Shown: piece after piece, positions 9,393 through 26,298 of the stretch
Position numbering within the stretch: the stretch's first letter is position 1
Layout: every line of letters begins with the position of its first letter
Source: an uncultured bacterium
GTDB taxonomy: Bacteria > Verrucomicrobiota > Kiritimatiellia > RFP12 > UBA1067
Assembly: GCA_902779075.1 (NCBI GenBank)
Contig: CACZAK010000002.1
Coordinates: 16,982-80,981 of the forward strand
DNA: 64,000 nt
Direction of reading: 5' to 3'
The notes under the pieces: generated by a model
What the model was told of the DNA's origin: nothing
Databases searched by the model: none
Seen by the model: the letters and a program-made list of their open reading frames with translations, nothing else
Program-made: the position numbers and the translations under genes

Positions 9393-10427
9393 TCACTGTC
9401 CGTCAAGAACAGCCTTCATACTCCGACTGAAAACTGCCGGAGCGAAGCGTGCGGCCTGAGCACGGCAGCGTTCGGGAGCCCATGTGCGGCTCTCGAACTC
9501 TTCTATGGCGGCACAGAGCGAATCAACCGTCTGCTCCGAGAAGAAAAGTCCCGTCTCGCCGGATAATACCGTCTCGCGCGCCCCGCCCACGCCGTATGCG
9601 ATGACAGGCGTTCCGGCGGCCTGGGCCTCGACGGGCACGATTCCGAAATCCTCCATGCCGGGGAAAAGCAGCGCCCGTGCTCCCGCGTATGCCGCGCGCA
9701 TGTCCTCGCGCGTGAATTCCCCGCCGCCAGCCACGACGAGGCGTCTGCCAAGCCGCGCGCAGGCCGCGCGGGCGAGGTCTAGCCGCTTGTACTTCACGGG
9801 CGCGCCGGCGAACAGGTAGTAGTCGCCGGGGTTCTGATCGCAGTCGCCGAAGAACTCCACGTCCACGGGAGGATAGACGACCGTAGAATCACGGCCGTAG
9901 ATGCGCTTTATCCGATCCGCGACGAACGCGCTGTTGGCGACAAACGTATCTACCGATTCTGCGCTCTTTAAATCCTCGCGTCTGAGGTACGGCGTGAAGA
10001 GACGCATTGCAAGCTTCCCCAACGGACCTGCGTCGCGGTAGTACTCGTCGTGCAGATCCCAAAGATAGCGCATGGGCGTGTGGCAGTAGCAGATATGTCG
10101 CGCGCCCTTCGGCTTACGTATACCCTTGATCGGCCCAGACTCGCTGGAAACGATGAGATCGTATCCGTCGAGCGCGATCCTGCGCGTCGCAAGTGGCATG
10201 AACGGCAGATACGCCTGCGGTTTCCGTCGGCCAAGCGGCAAACGCGCGATGAACGTCTCCCGAACGCGATGCCCTTCCCACACGCCATCCTCGCCAGACG
10301 TGCGCATTTTTCGACCGAACGCATGCGTATAGATGTCGGCGTCCGGCAACAGACGCCCAAGTGCGGACAAGACCTGCTCGCCCCCGCGACGGTTGGTCAA
10401 CCAGTAATGCAGCAACGCCGTCTTCAT
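9393..10427 (-). CDS. GT4-type glycosyltransferase
   Basis: 344-residue GT-B glycosyltransferase. The N-terminus (ALLHYWLTNRRGGEQVLSAL) carries the Gly-rich acceptor-side loop. The C-terminal half holds the family retaining motif EDFGIVPVE within LFPGMEDFGIVPVEAQAAG, an E-x7-E pair that binds the nucleotide sugar. It resembles WbaZ-like mannosyltransferases, but the donor cannot be read from sequence. ATG at 10427 shares one base with the stop of the upstream gene (TGATG) and has GGAGG about 8 nt before it, so I preferred it over the TTG one codon earlier. It is the last gene of the polysaccharide cluster; no terminator hairpin is visible before the convergent mscS gene. Confidence 0.85.
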   Translation of the reverse strand: MKTALLHYWLTNRRGGEQVLSALGRLLPDADIYTHAFGRKMRTSGEDGVWEGHRVRETFIARLPLGRRKPQAYLPFMPLATRRIALDGYDLIVSSESGPIKGIRKPKGARHICYCHTPMRYLWDLHDEYYRDAGPLGKLAMRLFTPYLRREDLKSAESVDTFVANSAFVADRIKRIYGRDSTVVYPPVDVEFFGDCDQNPGDYYLFAGAPVKYKRLDLARAACARLGRRLVVAGGGEFTREDMRAAYAGARALLFPGMEDFGIVPVEAQAAGTPVIAYGVGGARETVLSGETGLFFSEQTVDSLCAAIEEFESRTWAPERCRAQAARFAPAVFSRSMKAVLDGQ

Positions 10428-11344
10428 CAAACGCCCTCCTCCATCAACGCGGCAAGCCCTTCCACGTCCTCGACCTTGAAAAGCTGGGCGGCGACGTAGT
10501 CCTTCAGGACGTCACGGTTGCCGGGGCAGTCGCTGGCAATGACGGCGCGGCCGCGCGCAACCGCCTCGAGAAGGAGATACGGCATTCCCTCCCAACGGCT
10601 CGGCGCAACAAGTTTTTCACCGCACAACATGTAGACGCCGGCGTCTGGGATTTCCCCGGCGAACTCAACGAGGTCAGAGATTCCAGACGCCTCCGCAAAA
10701 CGCTTCATCGAGTCCAGCATCTGACCACCGCCGATGAGAAGCGTCCGCCGCCTGCTCGCCCGCAGGCGGTCCTGAACGCGGGAAATGGCCTGAAGCAGGA
10801 TGTCCTGTCCCTTCTGAAAGTCAAAACGCGCAATGCAGACGAACGCGAACTCGCCGATAGTATAGCGAAGTACTCCTTCTGGTTGCCGCAACTCCACTGC
10901 GCGAACCGAATTCGGCTCAATGACGACTGGAAGCGCGGAACCGTAGAGCCGCTGTATATCCGCCGCGTCCGTTTCCGTGAGCGCGATCAATTCGTCGCAT
11001 CTGCGGTAGAGCCAGCGTTCCAGGGAAAGACGAAGCGCACGCCGAATGCGGTTGTCGAAAGTCTTTGGCAGGAAATCGTATTTGCGGAGATGGATTCCGT
11101 GGACGGTGAAGATCACCTTGCCATTGGGCCTTGAGAACGGATTGCGGAAAAGCTGGACGAGTGCCTTCAGGTGATTAGCGTGAATCACGTCCGCGCTCCA
11201 TGCGTTCATATTCGCGGCAGTGCATTCGCCGCGGCACGAGAAGAACACGCGAGACTCGTCTTGCGGATGCGCGGCCATCTGGCGGCGGATGTACTCCATG
11301 CCGCCGCCTACGGAATCCCGGTCAATCAAATAGGCACGCCGCAC
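10427..11344 (-). CDS. GT4/GT1-type glycosyltransferase
   Basis: 305-residue GT-B enzyme, short for the family because the N-terminal domain is compact. It has VIHANHLKAL and FTVHGIHLR in the N-terminal domain. The C-terminal donor-binding motif is APSRWEGMPYLLLEAVARG, with the E-x7-E pair. The start is GTG at 11344, preceded by GGGAG, and it overlaps the preceding GT2 gene by 23 nt. The cytoplasmic glycosyltransferase role in assembling the repeat unit is inferred from context. Confidence 0.8.
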   Translation of the reverse strand: MRRAYLIDRDSVGGGMEYIRRQMAAHPQDESRVFFSCRGECTAANMNAWSADVIHANHLKALVQLFRNPFSRPNGKVIFTVHGIHLRKYDFLPKTFDNRIRRALRLSLERWLYRRCDELIALTETDAADIQRLYGSALPVVIEPNSVRAVELRQPEGVLRYTIGEFAFVCIARFDFQKGQDILLQAISRVQDRLRASRRRTLLIGGGQMLDSMKRFAEASGISDLVEFAGEIPDAGVYMLCGEKLVAPSRWEGMPYLLLEAVARGRAVIASDCPGNRDVLKDYVAAQLFKVEDVEGLAALMEEGV

Positions 11345-12119
11345 AGGCCAGAGCTCCCTTCTTGAGAAGTCCGTGACGCGGATCGGACAGCAGGCCGCCA
11401 GTCATCCGCGCCCTCAGCACCCTCCAAAGCTTTCTGTCGAAAAGACGATGCCTGATCCACAGCAGCAGTACGTCACGAGTGACGCGGTCGTGGAAATCCG
11501 CGTACTTTGGTTCCGGCATCGCAGAGCGGAGGATTTCCCCTACGCGCGCGAGGTCTTCAACGCGCTTCCGCCCGTCCTGGACGTGCGTAACGGAAGCACC
11601 GTTCTCGCAATAGTGGTAGAACGCCTTGTCCATGACGGCGACGCGGCGCGCCTTGCGCAGAGCCTGAGCCGTCACCATCAGGTCTTCGCCTAACGAAACG
11701 GACAAATCAACAGAAATATCCTCCAAAAGCTCACGCCTAAACAACTTGTTCACAAGCGCATTGTAGGTATCGCTAGGCCCATTTGAGTCGAACGGCTTGC
11801 GGATAGACTTGCCGCCTGCACCGTCACGGACAAGTCCGCAGCAAACGCAGTCCGCCGATTCCCGTCGTGCGGCTTCCATCATTTCCGCGATTGCGCCCGG
11901 TTCAATCCAATCGTCCGCATCGCAAAAGGTAATCCACTCGCCCGTTGCCTTTTCAAGTCCTGCACGGCGGGCGGCGGGAAGAGTTTGCGGACCATCGGCA
12001 GGCGGCGCGACAACAACAGGTTCAACCGAGCCATACGTCTGGGCCGCTATCGACTTGAGCGCCCGCCCAAGCAACGGCGTTTCACCCCAGGCTGGAATGA
12101 TGACGGAACAGCGCGGCAT
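11322..12119 (-). CDS. GT2 family glycosyltransferase
   Basis: 265-residue GT-A transferase. CSVIIPAWGETPLLGRALKS begins the nucleotide-binding fold and FCDADDWIEPG contains the metal-binding D-x-D motif at about residues 67-77. There is a single domain and no membrane segment. It lies 21 nt after the Gfo/Idh gene and overlaps the next gene, consistent with one operon. The donor and acceptor are unknown. Confidence 0.85.
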   Translation of the reverse strand: MPRCSVIIPAWGETPLLGRALKSIAAQTYGSVEPVVVAPPADGPQTLPAARRAGLEKATGEWITFCDADDWIEPGAIAEMMEAARRESADCVCCGLVRDGAGGKSIRKPFDSNGPSDTYNALVNKLFRRELLEDISVDLSVSLGEDLMVTAQALRKARRVAVMDKAFYHYCENGASVTHVQDGRKRVEDLARVGEILRSAMPEPKYADFHDRVTRDVLLLWIRHRLFDRKLWRVLRARMTGGLLSDPRHGLLKKGALACAACLFD

Positions 12120-12140
12120 CAGTATTGCTTTAATTGGCGT

Positions 12141-13151
12141 TCACGACATGCCGCTCTGCTTTTTAAACTCCTCAACCAGCCGTTCCTGCCGCAACAAATT
12201 TTCATAATTGCCATTACGCACTTCATCATCCACTACGCAAGCCCCAAAATGCCGGATCGATCCAAGGAATGCGTCATCAACAGGCAGCTTACCCTCCGTA
12301 AACTCCTGGTTCTTCTTTATTGTATAGCTTGGTTCATACCCACTCGGGGCGGTCAAAATGCGCCCCGTGGTCAAGGTGCCTTTGCTACCCCAGATCTCCA
12401 AATCGCATTTGTAGTCATTATCCATGCCAAAAGCCACCTGTGCCACAGCGCCCTTTCCGTCTTCCAACGTCGCGGAGCCGTACATGTCAACTTCAAATCC
12501 ACCCACATAACCAGCGGACGCAGCCCTTAACCGGACATCACCGCAAAGGAGCTCTGAAGCCAACTTCATGGTATAGCCTCCTGCATCCAGCAACGCACCT
12601 CCACCGAGAGCTTTATTGTAACGGAAGTCGCGGGCATCACGGCGAGGGAACCCAAAACTGACGCGATAAAGACGTACGTCCCCGATTTCACCGCTCTTCA
12701 CGATCTTGTCGATGGCAGCCATTTGCTTATGAAACACGAACATATAATTCTCATGCAAAGCCAATTTTTTTTCAGCGGCCAAGGACACCAATGCCTGAGT
12801 ATCCGCAAAGCAGGTGGTCGATGGTTTCTCCACCAGCACATGCTTACCATTTTCCAACGCCATCTTTGCCCATTTGAAATGCAATGCCGGCGGCAGCGGA
12901 ACATAGAGGGCGTCAATCTCGTCTGAACGAATTAGGGCACCATATCCCTCAAAAATCTTCCCGCCGTGGTTTTCGACAAAGGCCTGGGCCTTTTCCCTTT
13001 CTTTGACAAGAATCTCATTTGAAGCACCGACAAACTCTTCCCGAGTGGCGACAGCCACGCCAACATATTGAAAGTCCGCAGCCTTTTTCAGAGACGGCAA
13101 GAACCGGCGAAAGGCTATTTCCGACGGGCAGATGATTCCTATCCTAATCAT
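12141..13151 (-). CDS. Gfo/Idh/MocA-type NAD(P) oxidoreductase, probable NDP-sugar 3-ketoreductase
   Basis: 336-residue oxidoreductase with an N-terminal Rossmann domain and the family signature KHVLVEKPSTTCFADT (about 91-107) carrying the EKP catalytic lysine. The C-terminal Gfo/Idh domain includes GGGALLDAGGYTMKLA. Members in dideoxysugar pathways (TylC1, KijD10 type) reduce the 3-keto group left by the 2,3-dehydratase. The 2,3-dehydratase and a sugar aminotransferase are the two genes upstream, so that role is the best inference. AGGAGG about 9 nt upstream supports the ATG. Confidence 0.8.
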   Translation of the reverse strand: MIRIGIICPSEIAFRRFLPSLKKAADFQYVGVAVATREEFVGASNEILVKEREKAQAFVENHGGKIFEGYGALIRSDEIDALYVPLPPALHFKWAKMALENGKHVLVEKPSTTCFADTQALVSLAAEKKLALHENYMFVFHKQMAAIDKIVKSGEIGDVRLYRVSFGFPRRDARDFRYNKALGGGALLDAGGYTMKLASELLCGDVRLRAASAGYVGGFEVDMYGSATLEDGKGAVAQVAFGMDNDYKCDLEIWGSKGTLTTGRILTAPSGYEPSYTIKKNQEFTEGKLPVDDAFLGSIRHFGACVVDDEVRNGNYENLLRQERLVEEFKKQSGMS

Positions 13152-13162
13152 TTTTGGCCTCC

Positions 13163-14308
13163 TTAGAAACCGTACATCTCCACCAGCACCTTCTTCATGT
13201 TTTCAACGGTATAGTCACACCCCTCATCGGCAAGGCTGGTGTAGAACGGCAAACGGACGATGCGACTCGCCAGATCCTCGGTGACGGGCAGGCTCTCCGG
13301 CTTGTATCCAAGCCTCAATCCGTAGGGCGAAGAGTGCAGCGGCAAATAACCGATATACACGTATATCTCCTTCTCCTTGAGCCGGCCCATGAAGTTCATC
13401 TTGTCCTTCTCCGACGGGAAGACGACCCAATATGCATGGTGATTCAGCTGTACGTACTCCTTGGGCTGGAAGACGCCGACGATTCCCTTCTCAACATACG
13501 GGGCGAACAACTTGCCATACGCTTCGGTCAACTTTGCACGTTTAGCCTTGATTTCCTCTTCGTGTTCCAGTTGCGCGCAGAGCATTGCCGCCAGAACATC
13601 CGAGAGCAGGTAGCTGGAGCCCTTATCAACCCAACTGTACTTGTTTTTCTGCCCATTTATGACCAAGCTGCGATCAGTTCCCTTCTCCTGGAGGAAGGTG
13701 GCCCGCTGGCGCCATTCAGGAACGTTATTCAGCAGCAATCCCCCCTCGCCGGCGCTGTAGTTCTTTGTCTCATGGAAAGAGAAGGCGGCAATGTGCGCTT
13801 TCTTGCCCGACGGAACACCTTTATAGAAGCTGCCGTACGACTGTGCGCAGTCCTGAAAGACAATCAAGTCATGCCTGTCCGCAATCTCCCTAATTTCGTC
13901 AATGTCGCACGGCACACCGGCATAGTCGATAGGCATAATCATCTTGGTCTTCGGTGTGATCAAAGCCTCTATCTTGGTGTAGTCAATGTTCATGGTCTTG
14001 GGATCGACCTCACAGAACACCGGGAAACCGCCAAAGAGCACAACGGCATTTACCGTAGAACTGAAAGTGTAGGACGGCAAAATCACTTCCTCGCCAGGTT
14101 TCAGATCGGCCAACACCACGCCCATCTCCAGTGCGGCCGTACCGGAAGGACAGAGGAAGGCGCTGTCGTAGCCATACTTCTCCTTCATCATTGCAAGTAT
14201 CTTCTTGCAATAGGCGTGGTTGCCGCACACCTGCCCGCTCCGCAGAGCATCCAGCATGTACTTCTCTTCATCACCAGTCAGGTAGGTCTTGTTAAATGGA
14301 ATCTTCAT
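13163..14308 (-). CDS. rffA: RffA/WecE-like dTDP-4-keto-6-deoxyhexose aminotransferase
   Basis: 381-residue PLP enzyme of the DegT/DnrJ/EryC1 family, nearly the length of E. coli RffA (376). The PLP lysine is in SFHETKNYSAGEGG at about residue 181, and this stretch is characteristic of the RffA/WecE branch. Other family features are CPSGTAALEMG (about 53-63), ILPSYTFSSTVNAV and FQDCAQSYGS. The expected reaction is transfer of an amino group from glutamate to C4 of a dTDP-4-keto-6-deoxy sugar. With a 2,3-dehydratase immediately upstream the real substrate may be a 2-deoxy derivative. The gap to the next gene is 11 nt. Gene symbol by family resemblance, not proven orthology. Confidence 0.85.
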   Translation of the reverse strand: MKIPFNKTYLTGDEEKYMLDALRSGQVCGNHAYCKKILAMMKEKYGYDSAFLCPSGTAALEMGVVLADLKPGEEVILPSYTFSSTVNAVVLFGGFPVFCEVDPKTMNIDYTKIEALITPKTKMIMPIDYAGVPCDIDEIREIADRHDLIVFQDCAQSYGSFYKGVPSGKKAHIAAFSFHETKNYSAGEGGLLLNNVPEWRQRATFLQEKGTDRSLVINGQKNKYSWVDKGSSYLLSDVLAAMLCAQLEHEEEIKAKRAKLTEAYGKLFAPYVEKGIVGVFQPKEYVQLNHHAYWVVFPSEKDKMNFMGRLKEKEIYVYIGYLPLHSSPYGLRLGYKPESLPVTEDLASRIVRLPFYTSLADEGCDYTVENMKKVLVEMYGF

Positions 14309-14329
14309 GACGATAGAACTTTCTCTTTT

Positions 14330-15697
14330 TCACTTGTAATTCAATGCCGAAATCAGGCTCCTTGCCTGAATGTTCAGGTAATTGTTAAATCTCAGGAAAT
14401 TGTAGATCTGACGCAGAGTCATCCAGGTGTATCGAGGAGGGAGTTCCAACGGGAAGCCCTCATCGGCCTCCACCATCATGTTGCGGTTCTGTTCATGGTA
14501 GAAACGACCGCCCTCCTCGCTCTGCAAGGTATCGAAAAGCACCTGGTCCTTCCGTGCGTTTACCACATAATCATAGAACTCTGGCCTTTGATCGCCCACT
14601 TTGCCAGTTAGACATTGTACCGTAGGGGCCAGCTCAATCACGTCAAAATTGCCGCATTCCAACTTGGCTTGGACAAGGAAGTGATAGATGCCGTTAATCC
14701 GCTTGACGATAAAGGCGCACAGGCCCTGTTGCATAGGCTGCACCAGTGGCTGGCTCCACGTGGCGACCTCTCTATTTGATATGGTCACGTTCACGCCTAT
14801 TATCTTAAAATACAGTCCGTCGTCACGCACAATTTCCCTGTCGGTCTTCTTCCACCCCGGCATATCCAACACAGAGCAAGGCGATACGAAGAGGTCGTAC
14901 TTAGCCTTCAAGGATGTAAGCCAACTCAGATGGTCTCGCGAACTGATGTAGCTATGGTTGGTAGTGGATGAAAGGATCAACCCCTTTCCAAATTCCGACA
15001 TGCCGGTCAACCCGTCAAATGGCGTCACGTAGTCACTGATGCTCAGCCCGGACAATACAGTCCGAGTATCCATATTGACCATATTGTCTTCACGCATCAG
15101 CTCCTTTATCTGGCCCAATGTCATCCAGCGGAAATCCTCCAGCACGGGGACGTCTTCATCTACCTTGATGATGATGTTACGATTGCGCTTACGCAGGAAA
15201 CGCGCCCCTTGCTCGCTCTGCAATTGATCGAGGATGATGTTCTCAGGCTTGGCATTCACGAAATATTCAAGATAGTTGGGCTTCTTCCCCGAATGTACTT
15301 GCGAGTAGTTGCTCTTGGTGGCTTGGAGCGTTGGGCTTATCTGCACGCAGTTCGTGTTGCCCGGCTCTATCTTGGCCTGCATCAAGCAGTACAGCACGCC
15401 ATTGATCACCTTGGTCAGGATGCCAAGATACCCAACTTCTGGCTGGTCGATGATCGGTTGCCGCCAGTGACTGTTCGTCCCATAGTCCGTCCTCACGTCG
15501 ATGCCCACGATCGAGAAGAACTTTCCGGAATCATGGCGAATGCTGCCATCCCCGTCACTGTGCCACATTTTCATCTCGGCAAAGGGGATTTGCTCCACGT
15601 TCACCGTCACGTCCCTGTTGCGACGTTTAATCCACTCCCTTAACTCATTCGTAGAGTTAAAAGGGTTGTCCTTAGTAAGAAGCGACTTAATGATCAT
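14330..15697 (-). CDS. NDP-hexose 2,3-dehydratase
   Basis: 455-residue protein made of two homologous halves, as in the NDP-hexose 2,3-dehydratase family (TylX3/KijB type). The first half carries KFFSIVGIDVRTDYG and LYCLMQAKIEPGN. The second repeats the pattern with YFKIIGVNVTISNREV and YHFLVQAKLECGN. The enzyme removes the 2-OH of a dTDP-4-keto-6-deoxyhexose, the committed step to 2,6-dideoxysugars. It is best known from antibiotic clusters of actinomycetes. Its position just before an aminotransferase and a Gfo/Idh reductase defines a 4-amino-2,4,6-trideoxyhexose route. AAGGGA about 8 nt upstream supports the start. Confidence 0.85.
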   Translation of the reverse strand: MIIKSLLTKDNPFNSTNELREWIKRRNRDVTVNVEQIPFAEMKMWHSDGDGSIRHDSGKFFSIVGIDVRTDYGTNSHWRQPIIDQPEVGYLGILTKVINGVLYCLMQAKIEPGNTNCVQISPTLQATKSNYSQVHSGKKPNYLEYFVNAKPENIILDQLQSEQGARFLRKRNRNIIIKVDEDVPVLEDFRWMTLGQIKELMREDNMVNMDTRTVLSGLSISDYVTPFDGLTGMSEFGKGLILSSTTNHSYISSRDHLSWLTSLKAKYDLFVSPCSVLDMPGWKKTDREIVRDDGLYFKIIGVNVTISNREVATWSQPLVQPMQQGLCAFIVKRINGIYHFLVQAKLECGNFDVIELAPTVQCLTGKVGDQRPEFYDYVVNARKDQVLFDTLQSEEGGRFYHEQNRNMMVEADEGFPLELPPRYTWMTLRQIYNFLRFNNYLNIQARSLISALNYK

Positions 15698-15712
15698 ACC
15701 AGAGTTCCCTTT

Positions 15713-15781
15713 TTAGCGCATTATGTCCTTGGACTTTCGCCAACTTTCTGCATCCTCAACTTTGGCCATCCTCATTATCAT
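15713..15781 (-). other. 22-codon ORF, possible remnant of an acetyltransferase gene
   Basis: An open frame starts on the stop of the preceding membrane gene (ATGA overlap) and ends 15 nt before the 2,3-dehydratase. It would encode MIMRMAKVEDAESWRKSKD followed by IMR. The segment IMRMAKVEDAES looks like the first strand and turn of a GNAT acetyltransferase (pattern I-R-x-A-x-x-x-D-A-x), but the domain then stops. It could be a truncated gene, a tiny coupling peptide, or chance. Confidence 0.25.
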
Positions 15782-19063: not shown

Positions 19064-19099
19064 GACACTCCAGCCCACCTCTCCGTTTGCTCATCCACC

Positions 19100-19858
19100 C
19101 TACTTGAATGTCAAGTCACAGGAAGCTCCGCCGTCAACCACGACCTGACTTCCGGTAATCCAGCGCGCATCATCGGAAAGCAAAAACGCGACAACTCCTG
19201 AAACATCTTCCGGTTTTCCCGTTCCCAGAGGATGCCTATGGTTCATCGCCGCAACGGCTATTGGATCGTTAAACACATCGTCTGCCATTTCAGTGTGGAC
19301 GGCAGCAGGGCACACCGTGTTTATCCTCACATTTGGCGCTAGTTCCACCGCCGACGCGCGGGCAAACGAATTCAACATTCCCTTGCTCATTCCGTACAAG
19401 GATTTCCCGCGAGTGGCCTGCGTCGCGGCAATACTGGAAATAAATACGACGCTCTTCATAAATTCCCCAGAAACCCTGCGTTTCATGAGGGAACCCAACA
19501 ACAGAATCGCCGATGTCGCGTTCGTATCGATAATGCGCCTATAGGACGAGAGGTCGATTGTCTTGATTGCCGTAAGGAAAACCATTCCCGCACAGTGTAC
19601 AAAATTATCTATCTTGTACGCTCCAGCGGAAACAAAAGACTCAAAATCGCGCTGAAGCGTATCCACTTTGGACAGATCGTAAGTCCAGATCACATGGCCA
19701 TCTCCCGAACAATGTCGCTTTGTCTCCTCCAGCTTCCGCCGGTCGCGGCCATGGAGAATCAACTTGTTCGTTTGCGAAAGCCTAGCAGAAATGGCCCTAC
19801 CAATACCGGAAGAGGCACCTGTCACAAGCGTATAGCGCGATTCGTCGCCCGACATCAT
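19100..19858 (-). CDS. FabG-like short-chain dehydrogenase/reductase
   Basis: 252-residue classical SDR with the NAD(P) motif TGASSGIG (about 13-20), the NAG-equivalent HCAGMV, the catalytic serine in FISSIAA and the YGMSK tyrosine/lysine pair, all in normal spacing. The C-terminus has the family ending ITGSQVVVDGGASCDL. It overlaps the stop of the acyl carrier protein gene upstream by 4 nt (ATGA). With KAS III two genes away it most likely reduces a beta-ketoacyl group on the carrier to the beta-hydroxyacyl form. Use of a free sugar or keto acid is the alternative. Confidence 0.8.
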   Translation of the reverse strand: MMSGDESRYTLVTGASSGIGRAISARLSQTNKLILHGRDRRKLEETKRHCSGDGHVIWTYDLSKVDTLQRDFESFVSAGAYKIDNFVHCAGMVFLTAIKTIDLSSYRRIIDTNATSAILLLGSLMKRRVSGEFMKSVVFISSIAATQATRGKSLYGMSKGMLNSFARASAVELAPNVRINTVCPAAVHTEMADDVFNDPIAVAAMNHRHPLGTGKPEDVSGVVAFLLSDDARWITGSQVVVDGGASCDLTFK

Positions 19859-20082
19859 TTGGTCCTTTTAGTTTCAAAGAAAGCCCAAAGGTCTTCCGCT
19901 GTTTCGATGCCCTTCAAATCGGGAACGGCCAACGTAAAGCCAAACTTGGAATCGGCGAGCGCCACAATTGAAAGCACCGACAGGGAATCCCAAGACGGGC
20001 AATCCCTCAGCTTGGCATCAGGTGCCAATTCCACCTCGTCTAGAATATTTGCAATCTCAGCCATGAATTGCGTCTTATCCAT
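19855..20082 (-). CDS. Acyl carrier protein
   Basis: 75-residue acidic protein with the phosphopantetheine site CPSWDSLSVLSI; the serine of D-S-L lies at about residue 34. The start is ATG 20082, 1 nt after the KAS III stop and preceded by GGAG; upstream in-frame codons belong to the KAS III coding sequence. The stop overlaps the SDR gene. The tight KAS III-ACP-SDR order suggests this carrier holds the growing short acyl chain. Confidence 0.8.
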   Translation of the reverse strand: MDKTQFMAEIANILDEVELAPDAKLRDCPSWDSLSVLSIVALADSKFGFTLAVPDLKGIETAEDLWAFFETKRTK

Positions 20083-20083
20083 T

Positions 20084-21163
20084 TCATTCTCCTTTGTTCG
20101 GGTAGTTGATTGTTTCACAGAAATCGAAATTGCCGCAGTCCATCACGATGCCCCCGTAGGTGAGGCCGACCCCAAAGCCGGAGAAACAAACTTTCTGCGT
20201 CTCACGGCAAAGCGTGTCGGCATCGTTGAGCGCCATCGCGGATGGAATCGTCGCGCCGCTGGAGTTGCCATAATGCTCGACCACGTTGTTCGGCATCTTT
20301 TCATACGGCACGTCCAGCTTCTCCGCCAGTTTCTGAAGCATGAACTTGTTCGGCTGATGAAAATAGTACTTGTCAATCCCGGCAAAGTCCGTCCCGGCAT
20401 CTTTCACAAGGTCGGCAAGCATCGGCGGCACATCCGCCATCACGAAGTTGAAGACCGCCGTGCCATCCATCACAAGGTTGTCCGGCGCACGCTCGTTCCC
20501 CTCTTCATCGGCCGCCATAATCGCCGTCTCAGGTGTTGACGGCTGACGGAATCCGCCAGCCGGAATCTTGAGAGCCATTGCTCGAGTGCCGTCGAAACGG
20601 ACGTCCGCAAAGACCTTGCCAGCGCCGGAACGGTTCTCGACAATCGCGATTGTCGCCGCATCGCCGATGAGCGGATAGCTGTTGCGATCTTTTTGCGACA
20701 CCTTGCGGCTCAACACATCGGCGTTCACGACGGCCACTTTTCCAATTCCCGGCTGTTCCAGCAGCTGAAACGCCTGAAGAAGCCCGATCACAAAGCCACA
20801 GCACCCCTGCGCAACGTCAATGCAGAAGCAGTCTCGACGAAGACCGAGCTTGCCGTGAAGGATGCAAGACGTCGGCGGCATGAAGTGGTCTGGCGAGAGC
20901 GTCACGTAGACGAGTGCGTCTATATCCTCCACTTTCAGCCTTCCGGATTCACAAAGCCGCCTAAAACCAAATTCCGCAAGATCAGAGGCGCAGACGCCTT
21001 CATCCACCACGCGGTGCGCCTTGTACCCCATGACCATCGCAAGCTTGCGCGAACGGTTCTCCGGCGCGTTGAAAAGCTTCATGTCATCGACGAACAGTCG
21101 TTCCCGATCAGGAACGACGACCGCCATGCCAGTGATGGCCTTGTCTTGAAAGGTGAACTTCAT
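20084..21163 (-). CDS. 3-oxoacyl-ACP synthase III-like (KAS III) condensing enzyme
   Basis: 359-residue thiolase-fold enzyme of the FabH type. The Cys-His-Asn triad is visible: DVAQGCCGFVIGL (Cys at about 120), FHQPNKFMLQKL (His at about 270) and HYGNSSGATIP (Asn at about 300). FabH enzymes condense an acyl-CoA starter with malonyl-ACP. A dedicated copy in a sugar cluster, flanked on both sides by carrier protein genes, implies synthesis of a special short beta-ketoacyl group. The start overlaps the upstream carrier protein stop (ATGA). It may instead act as an acyltransferase, as some KAS III homologues do. Confidence 0.8.
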   Translation of the reverse strand: MKFTFQDKAITGMAVVVPDRERLFVDDMKLFNAPENRSRKLAMVMGYKAHRVVDEGVCASDLAEFGFRRLCESGRLKVEDIDALVYVTLSPDHFMPPTSCILHGKLGLRRDCFCIDVAQGCCGFVIGLLQAFQLLEQPGIGKVAVVNADVLSRKVSQKDRNSYPLIGDAATIAIVENRSGAGKVFADVRFDGTRAMALKIPAGGFRQPSTPETAIMAADEEGNERAPDNLVMDGTAVFNFVMADVPPMLADLVKDAGTDFAGIDKYYFHQPNKFMLQKLAEKLDVPYEKMPNNVVEHYGNSSGATIPSAMALNDADTLCRETQKVCFSGFGVGLTYGGIVMDCGNFDFCETINYPNKGE

Positions 21164-21390
21164 CTTTTCCTGGACCTTTGAACCAGAGCCTCGATTGCAT
21201 CGACGTTTGCAAAATTCTCAGGCAGAATATCCGTGCCGTCGATCTTTATGCCAAACCGTTCGTCCAGCGTCGAGACAAGCGTCATGAGGTCAAACGAGTC
21301 CAACATACCCTCGTCGAAGAAATTCTCCACGCCGTCGAACTCGAATTCGGGGCGAATCTCCTTTAGTATCTCTATTATTTGGGTTTTCAT
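21160..21390 (-). CDS. DltC-like acyl/aminoacyl carrier protein
   Basis: 76 residues. FFDEGMLDSFDLMTLVSTL includes the attachment serine (D-S-F) and resembles the (E)GLLDSF pattern of DltC, the D-alanyl carrier protein. ATG 21390 is the start: the in-frame ATG 14 codons earlier would include promoter elements. A TTGCGC-17-TATACT promoter ends 7 nt before the ATG, so the message may be leaderless. A DltA-like ligase lies two genes upstream, the natural partner for loading this carrier. Confidence 0.75.
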   Translation of the reverse strand: MKTQIIEILKEIRPEFEFDGVENFFDEGMLDSFDLMTLVSTLDERFGIKIDGTDILPENFANVDAIEALVQRSRKR

Positions 21391-21397
21391 GGCAAGC

Positions 21398-21426
21398 AGT
21401 ATATCATTATTCGTATCAATGCGCAA
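21398..21426 (-). promoter_or_regulatory. Internal promoter before the carrier protein-KAS III genes, likely leaderless
   Basis: TTGCGC (21426-21421), a 17-nt spacer and TATACT (21403-21398) on the minus strand. Only 7 nt separate the -10 from the carrier protein ATG at 21390, and there is no room for a Shine-Dalgarno. It overlaps the end of the preceding acyltransferase-like gene. Confidence 0.6.
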
Positions 21427-22231
21427 GCACAATATCTTTCAGCGGCTCAAACTCAAATCCGTAGTGCCGATAGCGCACAATGGCGTTCTCGTTGTCTGTC
21501 TTGACCCAGAAATATTGCCGTTTCGTATCCGCGCCAGCCGCGAACATGGAACGCATCAGCCTGCCACCTAGCCCATTGCCGCGGTCTCTAGGCGACACAA
21601 ACCAATATCGCAGGTAGAGCGCCGCCGGGGAAAGGTCAAATATGACAAATCCCCTGATGTCGTGCTCTGAATTTCCTCTTGCGACAAATATTTCCCCAGC
21701 GTTGATCCAGTCTTGAATCTCCTCCAGTTCTGGAAGCTGTTCCTCTTCCGCGTTGAAATGGCCGAGCAACAGAGTGCGAATGGCCCCAGCGTCAGCCTGT
21801 TGCGCGACGGCTATTCCGCTTTCATGCACGAACGCCTCGTCCGGCGTTCGCCTCGACATCCGCTGAAGTGTCGTCAATGCTGTAAAACCCGCCGACCTGA
21901 ATGCGGCTTCCAGCGGTTCCCGCATGGCATCGCGCCCAAGGACGTCCACGACCCACCGAAACGGGACGCTCGCCGAAATCAGCTGTTGCACGTCTTCGGC
22001 GATGTCTTCAGACGATTCTGTGAGGAAATAAAGGTTAAGGAAATCTTGCTGATGGCGTATGAGGAAAGTTGTCTTTCCAAATTCTGCGCATGAGAAAGCT
22101 CGCTTCTCGCACCACCTCGCCATGCGCTTTTCGTCCGAAAAGAAATTGGATGTCATGCGCCCCCTGTCGCGCGCCACCGCCACGCAACGCACCACATCGT
22201 CCCAGCTGTCAAAAAACTTCATATCAGCCAT
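21416..22231 (-). CDS. GNAT-family acyltransferase-like protein
   Basis: 271 residues. The C-terminal 140 residues carry a GNAT fold: a beta strand LYLRYWFVSP followed by RDRGNGLGGRLM (motif A, R-x-x-G-x-G), and later ENAIVRYRHYGFEFEP (motif B). The N-terminal half is less conserved and may be a second, degenerate GNAT domain. It overlaps the DltA-like ligase gene by 8 nt, so it probably transfers the activated acyl or aminoacyl group from the carrier protein to an amine acceptor. Its exact donor and acceptor are unknown. Confidence 0.65.
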   Translation of the reverse strand: MADMKFFDSWDDVVRCVAVARDRGRMTSNFFSDEKRMARWCEKRAFSCAEFGKTTFLIRHQQDFLNLYFLTESSEDIAEDVQQLISASVPFRWVVDVLGRDAMREPLEAAFRSAGFTALTTLQRMSRRTPDEAFVHESGIAVAQQADAGAIRTLLLGHFNAEEEQLPELEEIQDWINAGEIFVARGNSEHDIRGFVIFDLSPAALYLRYWFVSPRDRGNGLGGRLMRSMFAAGADTKRQYFWVKTDNENAIVRYRHYGFEFEPLKDIVLAH

Positions 22232-23753
22232 TCACTTGTCGGTTCAGTAGCGCGCGGTCAATCTTTCCTGTTCCGCCGCGAGGCAGCTCCTCGAGACGCC
22301 GGAACTCCGATGGTATCATGTACTTCGGAAGAACCTGCCCTATCGCCTTGCGGAACTCGGCGGGCGAAATCTCGAGTTTACCCTCGTAGAAGAACACGAT
22401 GACCTTCTCCGCCTTGTTATACACAACACATCCATTTGGCACTAGCTTGAGCGTGTTTATGATTACATGCTCGATCTCGCCCAACTCAATCCGATAGCCG
22501 GAATGCTTTATGAGCGTATCCTTACGCCCCTTGAACATGATTTCGCCTCGTTCATTGCGCGATACGATGTCGCCCGTACGATAGATGATTTCTGGATATG
22601 CGGTATTAAGCGGATTTTGAGTGAACGCCGCCGCCGTCTTTTCTGGATTGTTGTAGTATCCCATCGCAAGTGATGTACCGCGCACGCAAAGTTCGCCTTC
22701 TTCGTCGCCAACAACCGGCTTGTTGTCGGCGTTGAGAATCAAGATGTCCGTATTGCGGCACGGGAAACCGATCGGCAGGGGCTCGTCGTCACGAAAATCG
22801 CGCGTGACCTCGAACCAGGTACAATCGAGGGTGATTTCTATAGGGCCGTAGAGGTTGACGAAACGCGCCCACGGTAGATTGCGCTTCCAGACGTTGAACT
22901 GCTTTGTCGGGAACACCTCGCCCGCGAACCAGACCATCTTCAGGTCCGGAAGCGGCATTTTCTCCATGAGACCCATGTTCGCCATGTTGACCATGATCGT
23001 TGGCACCCAGAACACCCACGAGACCTTTTCCTTTTGCAACAGCTCAAGAATCTTCACGGGGAACATAGCCCAGCTGTCCGGAATCAGTACCATCGTTGCC
23101 CGTTTTGCAACCAAGAGACACAATTCGAAACTGTAGATGTCGAATATGATCGGCGAAAGAGACCCGACAACAAGACCGTCCTCCAGTTGCCATGTCTCAA
23201 ATGCACACGCCATAAAGTCAAAGAAACTCCGGTGGTTCAATACAACGCATTTCGGCGTACCTGTTGAGCCGGAGGTGTTGATGAGACAGAGTGGATCGGT
23301 ATCAATGCCATGTTCAATGATTGCATTTAAACGCGCTTCCGCGCCATCCTTTTGCTCAAGCCCATCAAGATCTTCCGTCAGTACTATCGGCGTATCGCCA
23401 GCAATCGGTTCGATGGTACCGCGATACTTAGCGTTTGTGATAATGGCAAGCGGCTGGGCCTGCTTCAATACGTTCGCCAAACGCTCTGGTGGAGTTTTGA
23501 CATCCATGTTCATATAGGCATTGCCCGAATGGATGATTGCCAAATCGGCGACTATCGCATGTACGCACTTCGGCAAAAATACAGCCACAGGCCGCCGCGT
23601 CACCTTAAATGTCGTCGCGATCCAGTCGGCGACTTTTATCTCGGCGACACGCAGATCGCCAAAAGAGAACCTAGTTTCACCGTCAACGACGGCAATGGTT
23701 TCCTGACAGCCGCTCGTCCTCTCCAGGAAGAACTGAATTAAATTTGTTTGCAT
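22224..23753 (-). CDS. DltA-like amino-acid/acyl adenylation enzyme
   Basis: 509 residues, the length of stand-alone D-alanine-carrier protein ligases. Core motifs are INTSGSTGTPKCVVLNH (ATP loop), FDIYSFELCL (A4 region with an aspartate at the position used by amino-acid-activating domains), NLYGPIEIT, YRTGDIV, GYRIELGEIEH and the C-terminal lysine motif GGTGKIDR. The enzyme should form an acyl- or aminoacyl-adenylate and load it on a carrier protein, probably the DltC-like one two genes downstream. The aspartate favours an amino acid substrate. AGGAG lies 8 nt before the ATG. Confidence 0.8.
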   Translation of the reverse strand: MQTNLIQFFLERTSGCQETIAVVDGETRFSFGDLRVAEIKVADWIATTFKVTRRPVAVFLPKCVHAIVADLAIIHSGNAYMNMDVKTPPERLANVLKQAQPLAIITNAKYRGTIEPIAGDTPIVLTEDLDGLEQKDGAEARLNAIIEHGIDTDPLCLINTSGSTGTPKCVVLNHRSFFDFMACAFETWQLEDGLVVGSLSPIIFDIYSFELCLLVAKRATMVLIPDSWAMFPVKILELLQKEKVSWVFWVPTIMVNMANMGLMEKMPLPDLKMVWFAGEVFPTKQFNVWKRNLPWARFVNLYGPIEITLDCTWFEVTRDFRDDEPLPIGFPCRNTDILILNADNKPVVGDEEGELCVRGTSLAMGYYNNPEKTAAAFTQNPLNTAYPEIIYRTGDIVSRNERGEIMFKGRKDTLIKHSGYRIELGEIEHVIINTLKLVPNGCVVYNKAEKVIVFFYEGKLEISPAEFRKAIGQVLPKYMIPSEFRRLEELPRGGTGKIDRALLNRQVNG

Positions 23754-23787
23754 TTCGTTTTCTCCTAACCGTCTTTTTACAGTGTAT

Positions 23788-24177
23788 TCAACTTCCTTGG
23801 CTGGCCACCGTTATACCCGCCACGATTAAAGCTACCCCCCAAATACGCCACGCATTTAACGACTCTCCTAACAAGAAATACGACAGCAGCACGACAAGAA
23901 CAAAACCAAGACTCGTGAATGGATAGGCATAGCTGATTTCCAGTTTGCTCATCGTCGCCATCCAGCATAGGCCTGAAACAAATGTTGCGAAAAGTCCACT
24001 AAATATAAACGGGTCAAAGAGCACCGTGAAGAGAGTGATAACCTTCGGCCAGATGCCTTCGGGTATCTTCAGACCGGCGAACTTTCCACTGATCCGCCAC
24101 TTCATGATCATCTGCGAGTAGACCGACGTAACAATCGTCGCCGCAAGATAGAGATGTGCAATGATTTTTGCATTCAT
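23788..24177 (-). CDS. SMR/EamA-type small membrane transporter, ArnE/ArnF-like flippase subunit
   Basis: 129 residues with four hydrophobic segments, the size and topology of small multidrug resistance proteins and of ArnF. Features are SQMIMKWRISG after the first helix and the C-terminal half LEISYAYPFTSLGF followed by FLLGESLNAWRIWG, typical of the ArnE/ArnF branch. ATG 24177 is chosen because the membrane helix begins there; the in-frame extension upstream is not protein-like. It lies between a GT-C transferase and the ArnC-like gene set, so a role in flipping an undecaprenyl-phosphate sugar is inferred. It may form a homodimer, as no second subunit is seen. Confidence 0.7.
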   Translation of the reverse strand: MNAKIIAHLYLAATIVTSVYSQMIMKWRISGKFAGLKIPEGIWPKVITLFTVLFDPFIFSGLFATFVSGLCWMATMSKLEISYAYPFTSLGFVLVVLLSYFLLGESLNAWRIWGVALIVAGITVASQGS

Positions 24178-24196
24178 ATCAGAAAGACTCGTTGAT

Positions 24197-25804
24197 TCAC
24201 GAAACTGGCTGTTTTTCGTCCGTTTCCTGCACGTTTTCGTCGGCAATTCCTACGTCCGTGCATTTCCTTCCTCGCACTTTCCGAACAAGTCGGCAGATGC
24301 GAACATAAACGGGATTATCCTTCTCAAACCAGACACCGGCGAAGGGAATGATCATAAAGAAAAATGGATAGATGCTCGTCCGATATCGCCCGTGCGACTC
24401 AATGATCATGCTCATTCCGGCGTATGAAAGGACGACTGCCAGTGACAGCACGCCAATTACCCAGGAATCCATCCGTCTACGCCTGTACATCGCCAGAACG
24501 AAACCCGACGCTCCCAAAAAGAACAAAAACGACGTTAAGAGATGCTCCGCACGCAGTAACGGCGCCAACCATGTCGGGCAGTAGTTCTCGTTCCTGGCAT
24601 TATAGCAGTTGTTCTGACATGACGCATGATACCACCACAGAATGCTCCCAGGAGAATCATTCGTCCCCCAAACCCTCTTAAACTTGTAAACAAAAAATTC
24701 AGGATATTTCTTCATGTTGTCCAAGAGCATGTTCTTGACCATTGCAATTTTCTCATTCTTCGGGGCTGATCTGAAGGCCCTGTCGCGCGTACGCGAATAA
24801 GACCCCCCGGTTTGAACGCACAATCCCAACCACATTTCATACAAGACCCCACCCGCGAAACTCTCCAGCGCCCCCCTCTTCGGCTCCTCGCTGGCTTTTG
24901 AAATCTCTTTAGCCGCGACAAATACGTCCGACCTTACGCCCAGGGCGACTTTATACGCCAAACAGATGGCGCACATGGACGTGAGCAGAAGCAAGGCCAT
25001 GCGGATTTTGCGTTTCTCCAGAATCATAATGGCAATAAAAACCATGAACGCAAAAAAGTATAAAAAAGCTATGGTTTTGAAAATGGTGCCGAGACCAAGC
25101 AACAAACCAGTCCCCAACCACAACACAAGGTTGTTGGTGGAAAACCTCTCCCAATCGGACTTTACGGCGAAGAAATAAATCGCATAAAGAAAGAACATGG
25201 CAGAGAGGAAATCACCGACCAAGACCGTTGAGTACAGCGTCAACGCCGGCGACAGCGCCGTTGCAATCGTCGCAAAACGGGCCATCCGGCGTCCGGAGAT
25301 GCGCTCACCCAATCTGAATACGGGATACAGCACCGCCGCCCTGCAGATGGCATTGAGAATCTGTCCGACAATAAGCTTTGGCGAAAACACGATTCCCATT
25401 ATCGAGAGCAAGAGGTCGTAGTTGACCCAATAGTAGAACTTCAACGGGCGATAAAACGCTATATGCCCCGCTTCAAGGCTCATTTGCGCCCGCAACGAAT
25501 CGTACGGCATCTTTCGCTGCCCCATTTCGGGTGCCAGCAACATAATTACCACATAAAATAAAAAGAACACGGCCATGAGAATCCATGGCTCGTATTTCAT
25601 GAACCGACCTTCTCCCAATCGTCCCAGCCCTTCAAGCACAACCCATATCAGAAGGACAACGACACCATACCACAATGCGTCGGGAAGCTTGAACCCGATT
25701 ACGGCAATGCTTGCGGAAAGGACGAGTGCCGCAAATAGCAATCCGACCAGTGCAACCGCCAAAATGAGAAAATACGGCGCTTTTTTTGAGATGCCGCCTA
25801 TCAT
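24197..25804 (-). CDS. GT39/ArnT-like polytopic membrane glycosyltransferase, candidate
   Basis: 535 residues with 10 or more hydrophobic helices and a basic cytoplasmic tail. The long loop after the third helix holds MPYDSLRAQMSLEAGH and FYWVNYDLLLS, and the middle helices carry ALSPALTLYSTVLVGDFLSA. This layout resembles the PMT/GT39 family, which transfers sugars from polyprenyl phosphate on the outer face of the membrane. It overlaps the 165-residue gene upstream by 4 nt and precedes the SMR gene by 19 nt. Donor and acceptor are not identifiable; an O-antigen ligase or polymerase role cannot be excluded. Confidence 0.65.
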   Translation of the reverse strand: MIGGISKKAPYFLILAVALVGLLFAALVLSASIAVIGFKLPDALWYGVVVLLIWVVLEGLGRLGEGRFMKYEPWILMAVFFLFYVVIMLLAPEMGQRKMPYDSLRAQMSLEAGHIAFYRPLKFYYWVNYDLLLSIMGIVFSPKLIVGQILNAICRAAVLYPVFRLGERISGRRMARFATIATALSPALTLYSTVLVGDFLSAMFFLYAIYFFAVKSDWERFSTNNLVLWLGTGLLLGLGTIFKTIAFLYFFAFMVFIAIMILEKRKIRMALLLLTSMCAICLAYKVALGVRSDVFVAAKEISKASEEPKRGALESFAGGVLYEMWLGLCVQTGGSYSRTRDRAFRSAPKNEKIAMVKNMLLDNMKKYPEFFVYKFKRVWGTNDSPGSILWWYHASCQNNCYNARNENYCPTWLAPLLRAEHLLTSFLFFLGASGFVLAMYRRRRMDSWVIGVLSLAVVLSYAGMSMIIESHGRYRTSIYPFFFMIIPFAGVWFEKDNPVYVRICRLVRKVRGRKCTDVGIADENVQETDEKQPVS

Positions 25805-26298
25805 TTGTCCACACCTCCTGTTGCTTTGATCAGCATCCTCAGGGCCATTGCCTCGACTCTGTCCTGCTGTTCAAGGGCCTGACGCTCTTTTACGGGCAGG
25901 CGGGCGGGTGACACGGATGTCTTTGGAGGCGGTTTTGGATGATTGGTCAACTGCTTATCCTCGGCATCCCACCACAACACAAGACCATACGGCATAATGG
26001 AGCGAAACCAACCGATGAGACCTTGATCCCGCGTAGCATCACCTCTCTGGATCCCGTATGACAGCCGAACGAAGCTTTTCATCTTTCCGTATGGCAGGAA
26101 ATACTTCACCAAACGCACATCGGATTCCGCGCGAACGCTCAATGCCGCAGTGAACGCATACGGCAGAACTGCCAGCACGGCACCGGCGACGCCCCCCCAC
26201 GGCGACGGCTTGACCTTAATGCCATATCGCCAGGCAAGCCATATCCGTGTGACAAACGCCGGAGGCAACAACTTAAGCATCCTGCGAAACGTCTTCAT
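25801..26298 (-). CDS. Hypothetical protein with repeated PYG motif
   Basis: 165 residues, no family recognised. The N-terminus is basic and a moderately hydrophobic segment (about 36-55) may associate with the membrane. Two related segments, YFLPYGKMKSFVRLSYG (about 67-83) and WFRSIMPYGLVLWWD (about 97-111), share a PYG core. The C-terminus is charged and probably helical. Four-base overlaps (ATGA) with both neighbours place it firmly in the operon between the triple-GT2/TagF protein and the GT-C transferase. Confidence 0.6.
   Translation of the reverse strand: MKTFRRMLKLLPPAFVTRIWLAWRYGIKVKPSPWGGVAGAVLAVLPYAFTAALSVRAESDVRLVKYFLPYGKMKSFVRLSYGIQRGDATRDQGLIGWFRSIMPYGLVLWWDAEDKQLTNHPKPPPKTSVSPARLPVKERQALEQQDRVEAMALRMLIKATGGVDK

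What the first reader, a model, noticed from the sequence alone, without database searches (positions are those of the whole stretch)
9393..26298. Complete-looking route to a lipid-linked N-acylated 4-amino-2,4,6-trideoxyhexose
Seen: 2,3-dehydratase, Gfo/Idh reductase, RffA-type aminotransferase, WecD-like acyltransferase, KAS III, SDR, two carrier proteins, DltA-like ligase, ArnC-like transferase, SMR flippase and two GT-C candidates, all co-directional with 4-nt overlaps or short gaps. Known: the 2,3-dehydratase/3-ketoreductase pair makes 2,6-dideoxysugars (TylX3/TylC1, KijB/KijD10); RffA and WecD aminate and acylate dTDP-4-keto sugars; ArnC, ArnE/F and ArnT load, flip and transfer lipid-linked aminosugars. 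As I recall, the modified viosamine of Pseudomonas syringae flagellin and anthrose of Bacillus anthracis carry beta-hydroxyacyl amides. Inference: these parts form one pathway making an N-(3-hydroxyacyl)- or N-aminoacyl-trideoxyhexose that decorates a glycan on the periplasmic side. I know of no described system joining all four modules.
Basis: partly seen in the sequence, partly recalled or inferred. Interest (0 to 1): 0.8.

Follow-up and report, generated by a model that had tools for sequence, protein, structure and literature searches.

The report
Gene cassette for acylated trideoxy amino-sugar
A run of fourteen neighbouring genes looks able to make an unusual deoxy amino sugar, fit an acyl group to it, hang it on a membrane lipid and add it to a surface polysaccharide, and related bacteria carry the same blocks of genes in other combinations.

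Summary
In detail: every enzyme class named is at the stated places, on one strand, gaps -50 to +80 bases; a second GNAT (21416-22231) was not listed. Comparison makes one pathway the best reading. (1) The trio 2,3-dehydratase / aminotransferase / Gfo-Idh reductase recurs in this order in five Bacteroidales loci (dehydratase 62-88%, aminotransferase 87-92% identical); of 87 dehydratase loci, 81 have a Gfo/Idh gene close by and 60 an aminotransferase. (2) Seven acyl genes with SMR and ArnC are collinear in a relative (G003) without a 2,3-dehydratase. (3) The nearest genome (G001) shares both flanks (88-98% DNA) but carries another amino-sugar cassette with relatives of GT-C, SMR and ArnC. So sugar-core, N-acyl and lipid-carrier blocks seem to be shuffled at one polysaccharide locus. 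Most likely product: undecaprenyl-phosphate-linked N-acyl-4-amino-2,4,6-trideoxyhexose. Acyl identity, stereochemistry, flipping and acceptor are inferred; nothing biochemical is shown. Single blocks are known (viosamine island, F. psychrophilum O-antigen, three-component glycosylation, antibiotic 2,3-dehydratases). No paper joining them turned up in a limited search. New variant of a known kind.

The parts
14330..15697 (-). NDP-hexose 2,3-dehydratase (EvaA/TylX3 family)
   Evidence: PF03559 505 bits; only PDB match EvaA 4j7g, 379 bits; E111 and E162 align with EvaA E139 and E190 and are invariant in 10 sequences (residues from PMC8987622, passages read)
13163..14308 (-). WecE/RffA-type sugar 4-aminotransferase
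   Evidence: NF008687 422.6 bits over cut-off; best PDB matches 6blg, 4piw, dTDP-4-amino-4,6-dideoxygalactose transaminases; tree
12141..13151 (-). Gfo/Idh/MocA reductase, proposed sugar 3-ketoreductase
   Evidence: best PDB match 'Sugar 3-ketoreductase' 3rbv, 193 bits, next different protein 82.5 bits
18302..19078 (-). WecD-like GNAT, proposed N-acyltransferase of the 4-amino group
   Evidence: AlphaFold model pLDDT 91.5; top Foldseek match E. coli WecD 2fs5, E 5.7e-11, TM 0.65/0.73, 16% identity; by sequence profile WecD only at E 0.17, after other GNATs
19100..19858 (-). SDR, FabG-like; proposed 3-ketoacyl-carrier reductase
   Evidence: adh_short_C2 4.1e-43; 80% identical in the G003 block
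19855..20118 (-). carrier protein 2
   Evidence: PF00550 20.6 bits, cut-off 20.8; DSL motif; 65% identical in G003
20084..21163 (-). KAS III-type 3-ketoacyl synthase
   Evidence: PF08541 4.3e-20; CCGF, FHQPN, YGNSS motifs; best PDB 4efi 163 bits; NCBIfam FabH models under cut-off
21160..21432 (-). carrier protein 1
   Evidence: PF00550 31.4 bits; 72% identical in G003, 60% relative in L042
   Evidence: PF00583/PF13508; 179 homologues at E<=0.001
22224..23753 (-). stand-alone adenylation enzyme (NRPS A-domain/DltA-like), proposed amino-acid loader of carrier 1
   Evidence: AA-adenyl-dom 294 bits (cut-off 317), DltA 237 bits (cut-off 476); PDB matches NRPS A-domains and DltA; its FD Asp aligns with that of linear gramicidin synthase A (role in amino-acid binding recalled)
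23788..24246 (-). SMR/EamA small transporter, proposed lipid-sugar flippase
   Evidence: EamA 34.1 bits over cut-off 28.2; ArnF-like 38 bits under cut-off 99; 90% identical in G001, 85% in G003; the true start is probably inside the ORF, cf. G001's 130 aa form
17349..18278 (-). ArnC/GtrB-type polyprenyl-phosphate glycosyltransferase
   Evidence: best PDB matches ArnC 9hwj 149 bits and glycosyltransferase sll0501 136 bits (that sll0501 is GtrB is recalled)
24197..25804 (-). GT-C candidate 1
   Evidence: PMT_2 30.0 bits over cut-off 26.1; about 9 TM stretches
15778..17352 (-). GT-C candidate 2
   Evidence: no Pfam; about 9 TM; D54 invariant and E55 nearly so in 17 sequences; model pLDDT 73.5, top Foldseek rows are OST, Pmt4, ArnT, AftA, PglB but 0 at E<=1e-3
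25801..26298 (-). 165 aa protein of unknown role with one TM stretch
   Evidence: no Pfam
9393..12119 (-). GT2 and two GT4 glycosyltransferases downstream
43192..45436 (-). Wzt and Wzm of the polysaccharide exporter, context
   Evidence: ABC_tran+Wzt_C, ABC2_membrane

Best explanation
A modular cassette in an ABC-exported surface-polysaccharide locus. dTDP-4-keto-6-deoxyglucose (made by enzymes encoded elsewhere) is dehydrated to the 3,4-diketo-2,6-dideoxy sugar, reduced at C3 by the Gfo/Idh enzyme and aminated at C4 by the WecE-type enzyme, giving dTDP-4-amino-2,4,6-trideoxyhexose. A small acyl line of separate proteins (adenylation enzyme, carrier 1, GNAT, KAS III, carrier 2, SDR) builds an acyl group, and the WecD-like GNAT puts it on the 4-amino group. 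ArnC moves the sugar to undecaprenyl phosphate, the SMR protein flips it, and a GT-C enzyme adds it to the glycan outside the inner membrane. Shown: gene content, order, recurrence, fold and motif conservation. Inferred: every reaction, the order of steps, the acyl group and the acceptor.
For: Order dehydratase-aminotransferase-Gfo in L020, L021, L022, L024, L050 (aminotransferase 87-92%, Gfo 63-70%) and, more distantly, L053, L054, L059, L065, L075, L098 (aminotransferase 62-67%, Gfo 28-33%). 87 loci: Gfo within 4.5 kb on the same strand in 81, aminotransferase in 60. An N-acyltransferase gene lies downstream in 30 of 48 loci with an aminotransferase and 2 of 14 without, p=0.002; without the loci that seeded the profiles 27 of 45 and 2 of 14, p=0.005. 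G003 has SMR-ligase-GNAT-ACP1-KASIII-ACP2-SDR-WecD-ArnC-aminotransferase in the window's order, 43-88% identical. G001: both flanks shared, other sugar genes, with relatives of GT-C (31%), SMR (90%), ArnC (63%). L050: ArnC-SMR-SMR directly before the trio and a 9-TM protein after it. In G125, ArnC, a WecD-like gene and a WecE-type aminotransferase lie within about 4 kb on one strand. Dehydratase-linked WecE-type aminotransferases form one 100/100 group. RmlB over cut-off in G001.
Against: No other locus seen has all four modules joined without a break: L021 has trio, ArnC, GNAT, ACP, KASIII and SDR, but four other genes stand between trio and ArnC and no SMR was found there; L050 shows no KAS III or ACP. 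ACP and KAS III are not significantly tied to the aminotransferase (12/48 v 1/14, p=0.26; 9/48 v 1/14, p=0.43). The acyl/lipid block stands without the dehydratase in G003, and neither GT-C candidate has a tblastn relative on that G003 contig. In G400 the WecE-type gene is about 6.7 kb from ArnC-WecD, with opposite-strand ORFs between. L050 has an FdtA gene (Pfam) beside the trio, and L020 a look-alike (by eye; it was a seed of the profile), which hints at 3,4-ketoisomerisation there; no FdtA hit in the window's cassette. Only one SMR gene, where ArnE/ArnF are two (recalled). GTC2 fold match is weak. The tree group was picked by >=50% identity to the window's enzyme, so its unity is partly built in; L094's copy is on the opposite strand to its dehydratase, and L097's WecE-type enzyme, about 6 kb from a dehydratase, falls outside the group.
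Confidence: 0.65

Rival explanations
1. Two sugars, not one: dehydratase and reductase make a neutral 2,6-dideoxyhexose, while the aminotransferase and WecD-like enzyme make an ordinary N-acylated 4-amino-4,6-dideoxyhexose.
For: Dehydratase-Gfo-ArnC clusters with no aminotransferase within 4.5 kb exist (L016=L096, L018=L066, L095); the acyl/lipid block with an aminotransferase exists without dehydratase (G003).
Against: A separate neutral sugar needs a 4-ketoreductase; in the cassette only the FabG-like SDR could be one, and it stays with the acyl block in G003. In the window and 11 other loci the aminotransferase gene lies between dehydratase and reductase. The window's aminotransferase is 41-43% identical to those of the G001 and G003 cassettes, which are 88% identical to each other.
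Confidence: 0.14
2. The trideoxy sugar is made but used as dTDP-sugar by the cytoplasmic GT2/GT4 enzymes; ArnC, SMR and GT-C carry another sugar.
For: Three GTs follow directly (9393-12119); only 9 of 87 dehydratase loci have a strict full-length ArnC relative on the same strand.
Against: ArnC and GTC2 lie between the acyl block and the sugar trio; SMR-acyl block-ArnC is conserved as a unit in G003; ArnC-SMR-SMR abuts the trio in L050.
Confidence: 0.19
3. The adenylation enzyme, carrier 1 and second GNAT act on something else (for example aminoacylate another residue), and only KAS III, carrier 2, SDR and the WecD-like enzyme make the N-acyl group.
For: ACP, KAS III and ketoreductase sets are tied to hydroxyacyl groups in P. 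syringae (mutants, PMC3927599) and, by prediction, F. psychrophilum (PMC6519341); ligase and carrier 1 relatives without a KAS III hit in L042.
Against: All seven acyl genes are interleaved and collinear in G003.
Confidence: 0.35
4. Non-functional or chance collection of genes in a decaying locus.
For: The cassette differs in GC (0.39-0.56) from the three GT genes downstream (0.59-0.62).
Against: All frames open, motifs intact, parts recur in other genomes.
Confidence: 0.02

Closest known systems
Viosamine island of Pseudomonas syringae pv. tabaci (vioA, vioM, vioT, vioS, vioB, vioR, acp; PMC3927599, passages read)
   Same: 4-aminotransferase, KAS III, 3-oxoacyl-ACP reductase and ACP for a dTDP-N-(3-hydroxyacyl)-4-amino sugar
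   Different: the seven genes listed there include no 2,3-dehydratase, 3-ketoreductase, adenylation enzyme, ArnC, SMR or GT-C; acyltransferase VioB instead of a WecD-like GNAT; sugar transferred by VioT
Flavobacterium psychrophilum O-antigen R-group genes wfpC-wfpG (PMC6519341, passages read)
   Same: ACP, two KAS, ketoreductase and acyltransferase predicted to put 3,5-dihydroxyhexanoyl on a 4-amino group of an O-antigen sugar
   Different: UDP-Qui2NAc4N, PglD-type acyltransferase, Wzx/Wzy assembly
EvaA/TylX3 2,3-dehydratases (PMC8987622, passages read) with KijD10/TylC1-type 3-ketoreductases (recalled) of antibiotic deoxysugar pathways
   Same: same two-enzyme 2-deoxygenation; EvaA E139/E190 conserved
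   Different: those serve secreted natural products; here a surface-polysaccharide locus
Three-component extracytoplasmic glycosylation (PMC11127046, abstract and outline read) and ArnC/ArnEF/ArnT (recalled)
   Same: polyprenyl-phosphate sugar synthase, flippase, GT-C
   Different: pentofuranose and MATE flippase there; here an ArnC-type synthase, one SMR protein and an acylated trideoxy amino sugar
WecE/WecD of enterobacterial common antigen (recalled)
   Same: aminotransferase over the NF008687 cut-off, WecD fold
   Different: 2-hydroxy sugar, acetyl group, Wzx pathway (recalled); WecD model cut-off not met

Membership tests
NDP-hexose 2,3-dehydratase (EvaA) | PF03559 over cut-off, two stretches of the domain | tested here: met
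   505 bits, 2 stretches
NDP-hexose 2,3-dehydratase (EvaA) | catalytic Glu pair E139/E190 | tested here: met
   E111/E162 by alignment, invariant in A1
NDP-hexose 2,3-dehydratase (EvaA) | 2,3-dehydration activity | not testable with these tools
   needs an assay
Sugar 3-ketoreductase (KijD10 type) | closest to the solved sugar 3-ketoreductase among Gfo/Idh enzymes | tested here: met
   193 against 82.5 bits for the next protein
WecE/RffA 4-aminotransferase | NCBIfam NF008687 cut-off | tested here: met
   422.6, cut-off 375
WecE/RffA 4-aminotransferase | TIGR02379 (ECA WecE) cut-off | tested here: not met
   365.6, cut-off 434.85
WecD | NCBIfam NF008212/TIGR02382 cut-off | tested here: not met
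   23.3 of 219 and 20.8 of 195.1
WecD | WecD fold | tested here: met
   top match 2fs5
ArnC | NF007986 equivalog cut-off | tested here: not met
   171 of 529
ArnC | same superfamily as ArnC and sll0501 | tested here: met
ArnE/ArnF flippase | two SMR subunits | tested here: not met
   one SMR gene among the cassette's ORFs of 70 aa or more
ArnE/ArnF flippase | NF002816/NF011625 cut-offs | tested here: not met
   38.1 of 99 and 30.6 of 92
GT-C transferase (ArnT/PMT), GTC2 | GT-C fold with acidic first-loop motif | tested here: inconclusive
   DE conserved, fold match weak
Viosamine-island-type N-acylation | aminotransferase, KAS III, ketoreductase and ACP together | tested here: met
Viosamine-island-type N-acylation | VioB-type acyltransferase | tested here: not met
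   no hexapeptide-repeat hit among the cassette proteins; that VioB is of that type is recalled
Three-component glycosylation | lipid-P-sugar synthesis, flipping and GT-C transfer demonstrated | not testable with these tools
   candidate genes only

The most novel reading that the evidence does not exclude
The seven acyl genes are a miniature hybrid line made of separate proteins: the ligase loads an amino acid on carrier 1, KAS III condenses it with malonyl-carrier 2, the SDR reduces it, the second GNAT caps the amine, and the WecD-like enzyme places the resulting statine-like gamma-amino-beta-hydroxyacyl group on a lipid-linked 4-amino-2,4,6-trideoxyhexose: a peptide-polyketide decoration on a surface sugar.
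Probability: 0.2. Interest if true: 0.8.

Novelty: new variant of a known kind. Interest (0 to 1): 0.55.

Why it matters
The 2,3-dehydratases named in the review passages I saw come from antibiotic pathways (PMC8987622). Here close relatives sit beside 4-aminotransferases in Bacteroidota, Kiritimatiellae and records titled Spirochaetia or Deltaproteobacteria, 14 of 89 loci with a Wzt relative of 35% or more. That predicts a family of 4-amino-2,4,6-trideoxyhexoses in surface glycans, many of them in gut and rumen bacteria, with interchangeable N-caps (formyl, hydroxyacyl, aminoacyl; inferred from neighbouring genes) and in some a lipid-carrier route. Window, G001 and G003 give a natural set of cassettes to test which genes decide which part of the sugar.

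Tried and rejected
Own assembly not held, so relatives were used. PF03559 is rare around it: 5 of 59 relatives, 6 of 387 genomes of the phylum. GTC1, GTC2, WecD and the 165 aa protein gave no hits in the 89 dehydratase loci by iterated profile, the second GNAT one. The ArnC profile drifted to general GT2s after iteration, so ArnC was recounted with a strict full-length tblastn filter. The PglD and GNAT profiles were seeded from loci that have an aminotransferase; the count was repeated without those loci. SMR proteins are too short and divergent for a dependable count. Considered and rejected: GNAT/KAS genes as housekeeping fatty-acid genes and the SDR as a sugar 4-ketoreductase (both stay with the acyl block in G003). 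Paper searches: the tool cannot search a comma, so '2,3-dehydratase' and names with '2,4,6-' could only be approached; zero hits is therefore weak.
Full report
What is there. On the minus strand, from 26298 down to 12141, lie: a 165 aa protein, GT-C candidate 1, an SMR protein, an adenylation enzyme, a GNAT, carrier 1, KAS III, carrier 2, an SDR, a WecD-like GNAT, an ArnC-like GT2, GT-C candidate 2, a 2,3-dehydratase, a WecE-type aminotransferase and a Gfo/Idh reductase, then three glycosyltransferases to 9393. Gaps are -50 to +80 bases. Upstream on the same strand are very long fused glycosyltransferases and Wzt/Wzm, so this is taken to be an ABC-exported polysaccharide locus.

Quality of the single calls. 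The dehydratase's only PDB relative is EvaA (379 bits), and the two glutamates whose change abolished EvaA activity (PMC8987622, passages) are kept and invariant in ten aligned sequences. The reductase is closest to the solved 'Sugar 3-ketoreductase' 3rbv (that this is KijD10 is recalled). The aminotransferase passes NF008687 but not TIGR02379. The WecD-like protein is weak by sequence, but its model (pLDDT 91.5) matches E. coli WecD first among solved structures. The ArnC-like protein's best PDB relatives are ArnC and sll0501. GT-C candidate 2 remains a candidate.

Where it lies. The window's assembly is not held; the nearest genome is G001, sharing 36% of sampled words. G122, placed in G001's class, has a contig of the same length (71,941) as a record titled Kiritimatiellae bacterium (L096), so the window is most likely from that class. 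DNA of G001 matches window 3657-11336 at 88-97% and 30663-51360 at 91-98%; in between only the SMR gene matched as DNA (81%). There G001 carries a GT-C relative (31%), another 8-TM protein, SMR (90% as protein), ArnC (63%), an ATP-grasp-type protein, an SDR of the dehydratase/epimerase type, a DegT-like protein and a WecE-type aminotransferase (41%). So one locus holds different amino-sugar cassettes, each with lipid-carrier genes.

The acyl block. A profile of the WecD-like family found 1 of 114 genomes of the family: G003, same genus as G001. There SMR, ligase, GNAT, ACP1, KAS III, ACP2, SDR, WecD-like and ArnC stand in the window's order (85, 72-88, 43, 72, 84, 65, 80, 58, 76% identical), followed by a WecE-type aminotransferase (43%). 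G003 has no PF03559 match in the whole genome, 88% complete; the only Gfo/Idh trace on that contig is a 92-residue match at 26%, on the other strand. Neither GT-C candidate has a relative on that contig. In the phylum 12 of 387 sampled genomes had a match to the WecD-like profile, 9 of them weak (E 4e-7 or worse). Of the three stronger ones, G125 has ArnC, a WecD-like gene and a WecE-type aminotransferase within about 4 kb on one strand; G400 has ArnC and the WecD-like gene side by side, but its WecE-type gene about 6.7 kb off; G274 has a WecD-like gene with SDR and ligase relatives and the aminotransferase on the other strand. None of the three is among the PF03559-positive genomes.

The sugar block. 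A scan of genome contigs with ten dehydratases gave 507 relatives, of which the best 80 were kept. The window's own order, dehydratase-aminotransferase-Gfo, is found in five Bacteroidales loci with 87-92% identical aminotransferase and in six more at 62-67%; the other 49 of the 60 carry another aminotransferase type, 26-43% identical. In L020 the trio has a formyltransferase and a FolD relative upstream, in L021 a GNAT-ACP-KASIII-SDR-KASIII set further downstream, in L050 ArnC-SMR-SMR upstream and a 9-TM protein downstream. Among loci with at least 8 kb downstream, a PglD-like or GNAT gene follows in 30 of 48 with and 2 of 14 without an aminotransferase (p=0.002); without the loci that seeded those profiles, 27 of 45 and 2 of 14 (p=0.005). 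ACP (12/48, 1/14) and KAS III (9/48, 1/14) show no significant difference. In 47 loci with 8 kb on both sides, ACP hits lie downstream in 9 and upstream in 1, KAS III in 5 and 1. Relatedness of the genomes was not corrected for.

Does the aminotransferase belong to the 2-deoxy sugar? In a tree of 29 enzymes the 13 dehydratase-linked WecE-type ones fall on one side of a 100/100 branch, the 5 from dehydratase-free loci outside. The 13 were chosen by identity, so this is partly built in; L094's copy is on the opposite strand to its dehydratase, and L097's WecE-type enzyme, 6 kb from a dehydratase, falls outside. In 393 sampled genomes of the order of L050's genome only two hits reached E<=1e-100, and both are dehydratase-linked copies already known; the genomes listed show at most four candidates scored each. 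In 17 genomes searched whole, chosen for having a dehydratase locus, the 12 copies of 55% or more are the dehydratase-linked ones by position. So no member of this group was seen away from a dehydratase, in a small sample.

Reading. The data fit three exchangeable blocks: sugar core (trio, or aminotransferase alone), N-cap (acyl line, ATP-grasp, formyltransferase) and lipid carrier (SMR, ArnC, GT-C). By inference the window combines a trio close to those of Bacteroidales with cap and carrier blocks of its own genus. The closest described systems cover one or two blocks each (PMC3927599, PMC6519341, PMC8987622 seen as passages; PMC11127046 as abstract and outline). None of the papers listed in ten answered searches showed, in title or start of abstract, a system joining them; only those four were opened, the library is partial, long result lists were seen only in their top rows, and the tool cannot take commas.

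Noticed in passing
window 26295-43187: Very long fused glycosyltransferases (1611, 1503 and 2062 aa frames) with several GT2 domains plus Glyphos_transf, pyruvyl transferase, FrhB, epimerase and TPP-enzyme domains.
   Followed up: no
window 31526-32799: About 15 copies of an 84-base tandem repeat inside the 1503 aa fused glycosyltransferase frame; the region also matches G001 in many registers.
   Followed up: partly
window 11336-30663 against G001:C15: A roughly 19 kb segment differs from G001 between flanks 88-98% identical in DNA, as in O-antigen switching.
   Followed up: yes
L016/L096, L018/L066, L095: Dehydratase-Gfo-ArnC clusters without an aminotransferase close by, in a Kiritimatiellae record, an untitled bacterium of the same phylum (G172) and an Arenicella record: candidate lipid-linked neutral 2,6-dideoxyhexose systems.
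   Followed up: partly
L021, L022, L024 downstream of the trio: Four conserved genes that look like a 2-oxoacid:ferredoxin oxidoreductase (by eye, not by a call) between the sugar trio and an ArnC-like gene.
   Followed up: no
L042 15.7-21.2 kb: Ligase (42%), GNAT (21%) and carrier 1 (60%) relatives near another 2,3-dehydratase locus of a Bacteroidales record.
   Followed up: no
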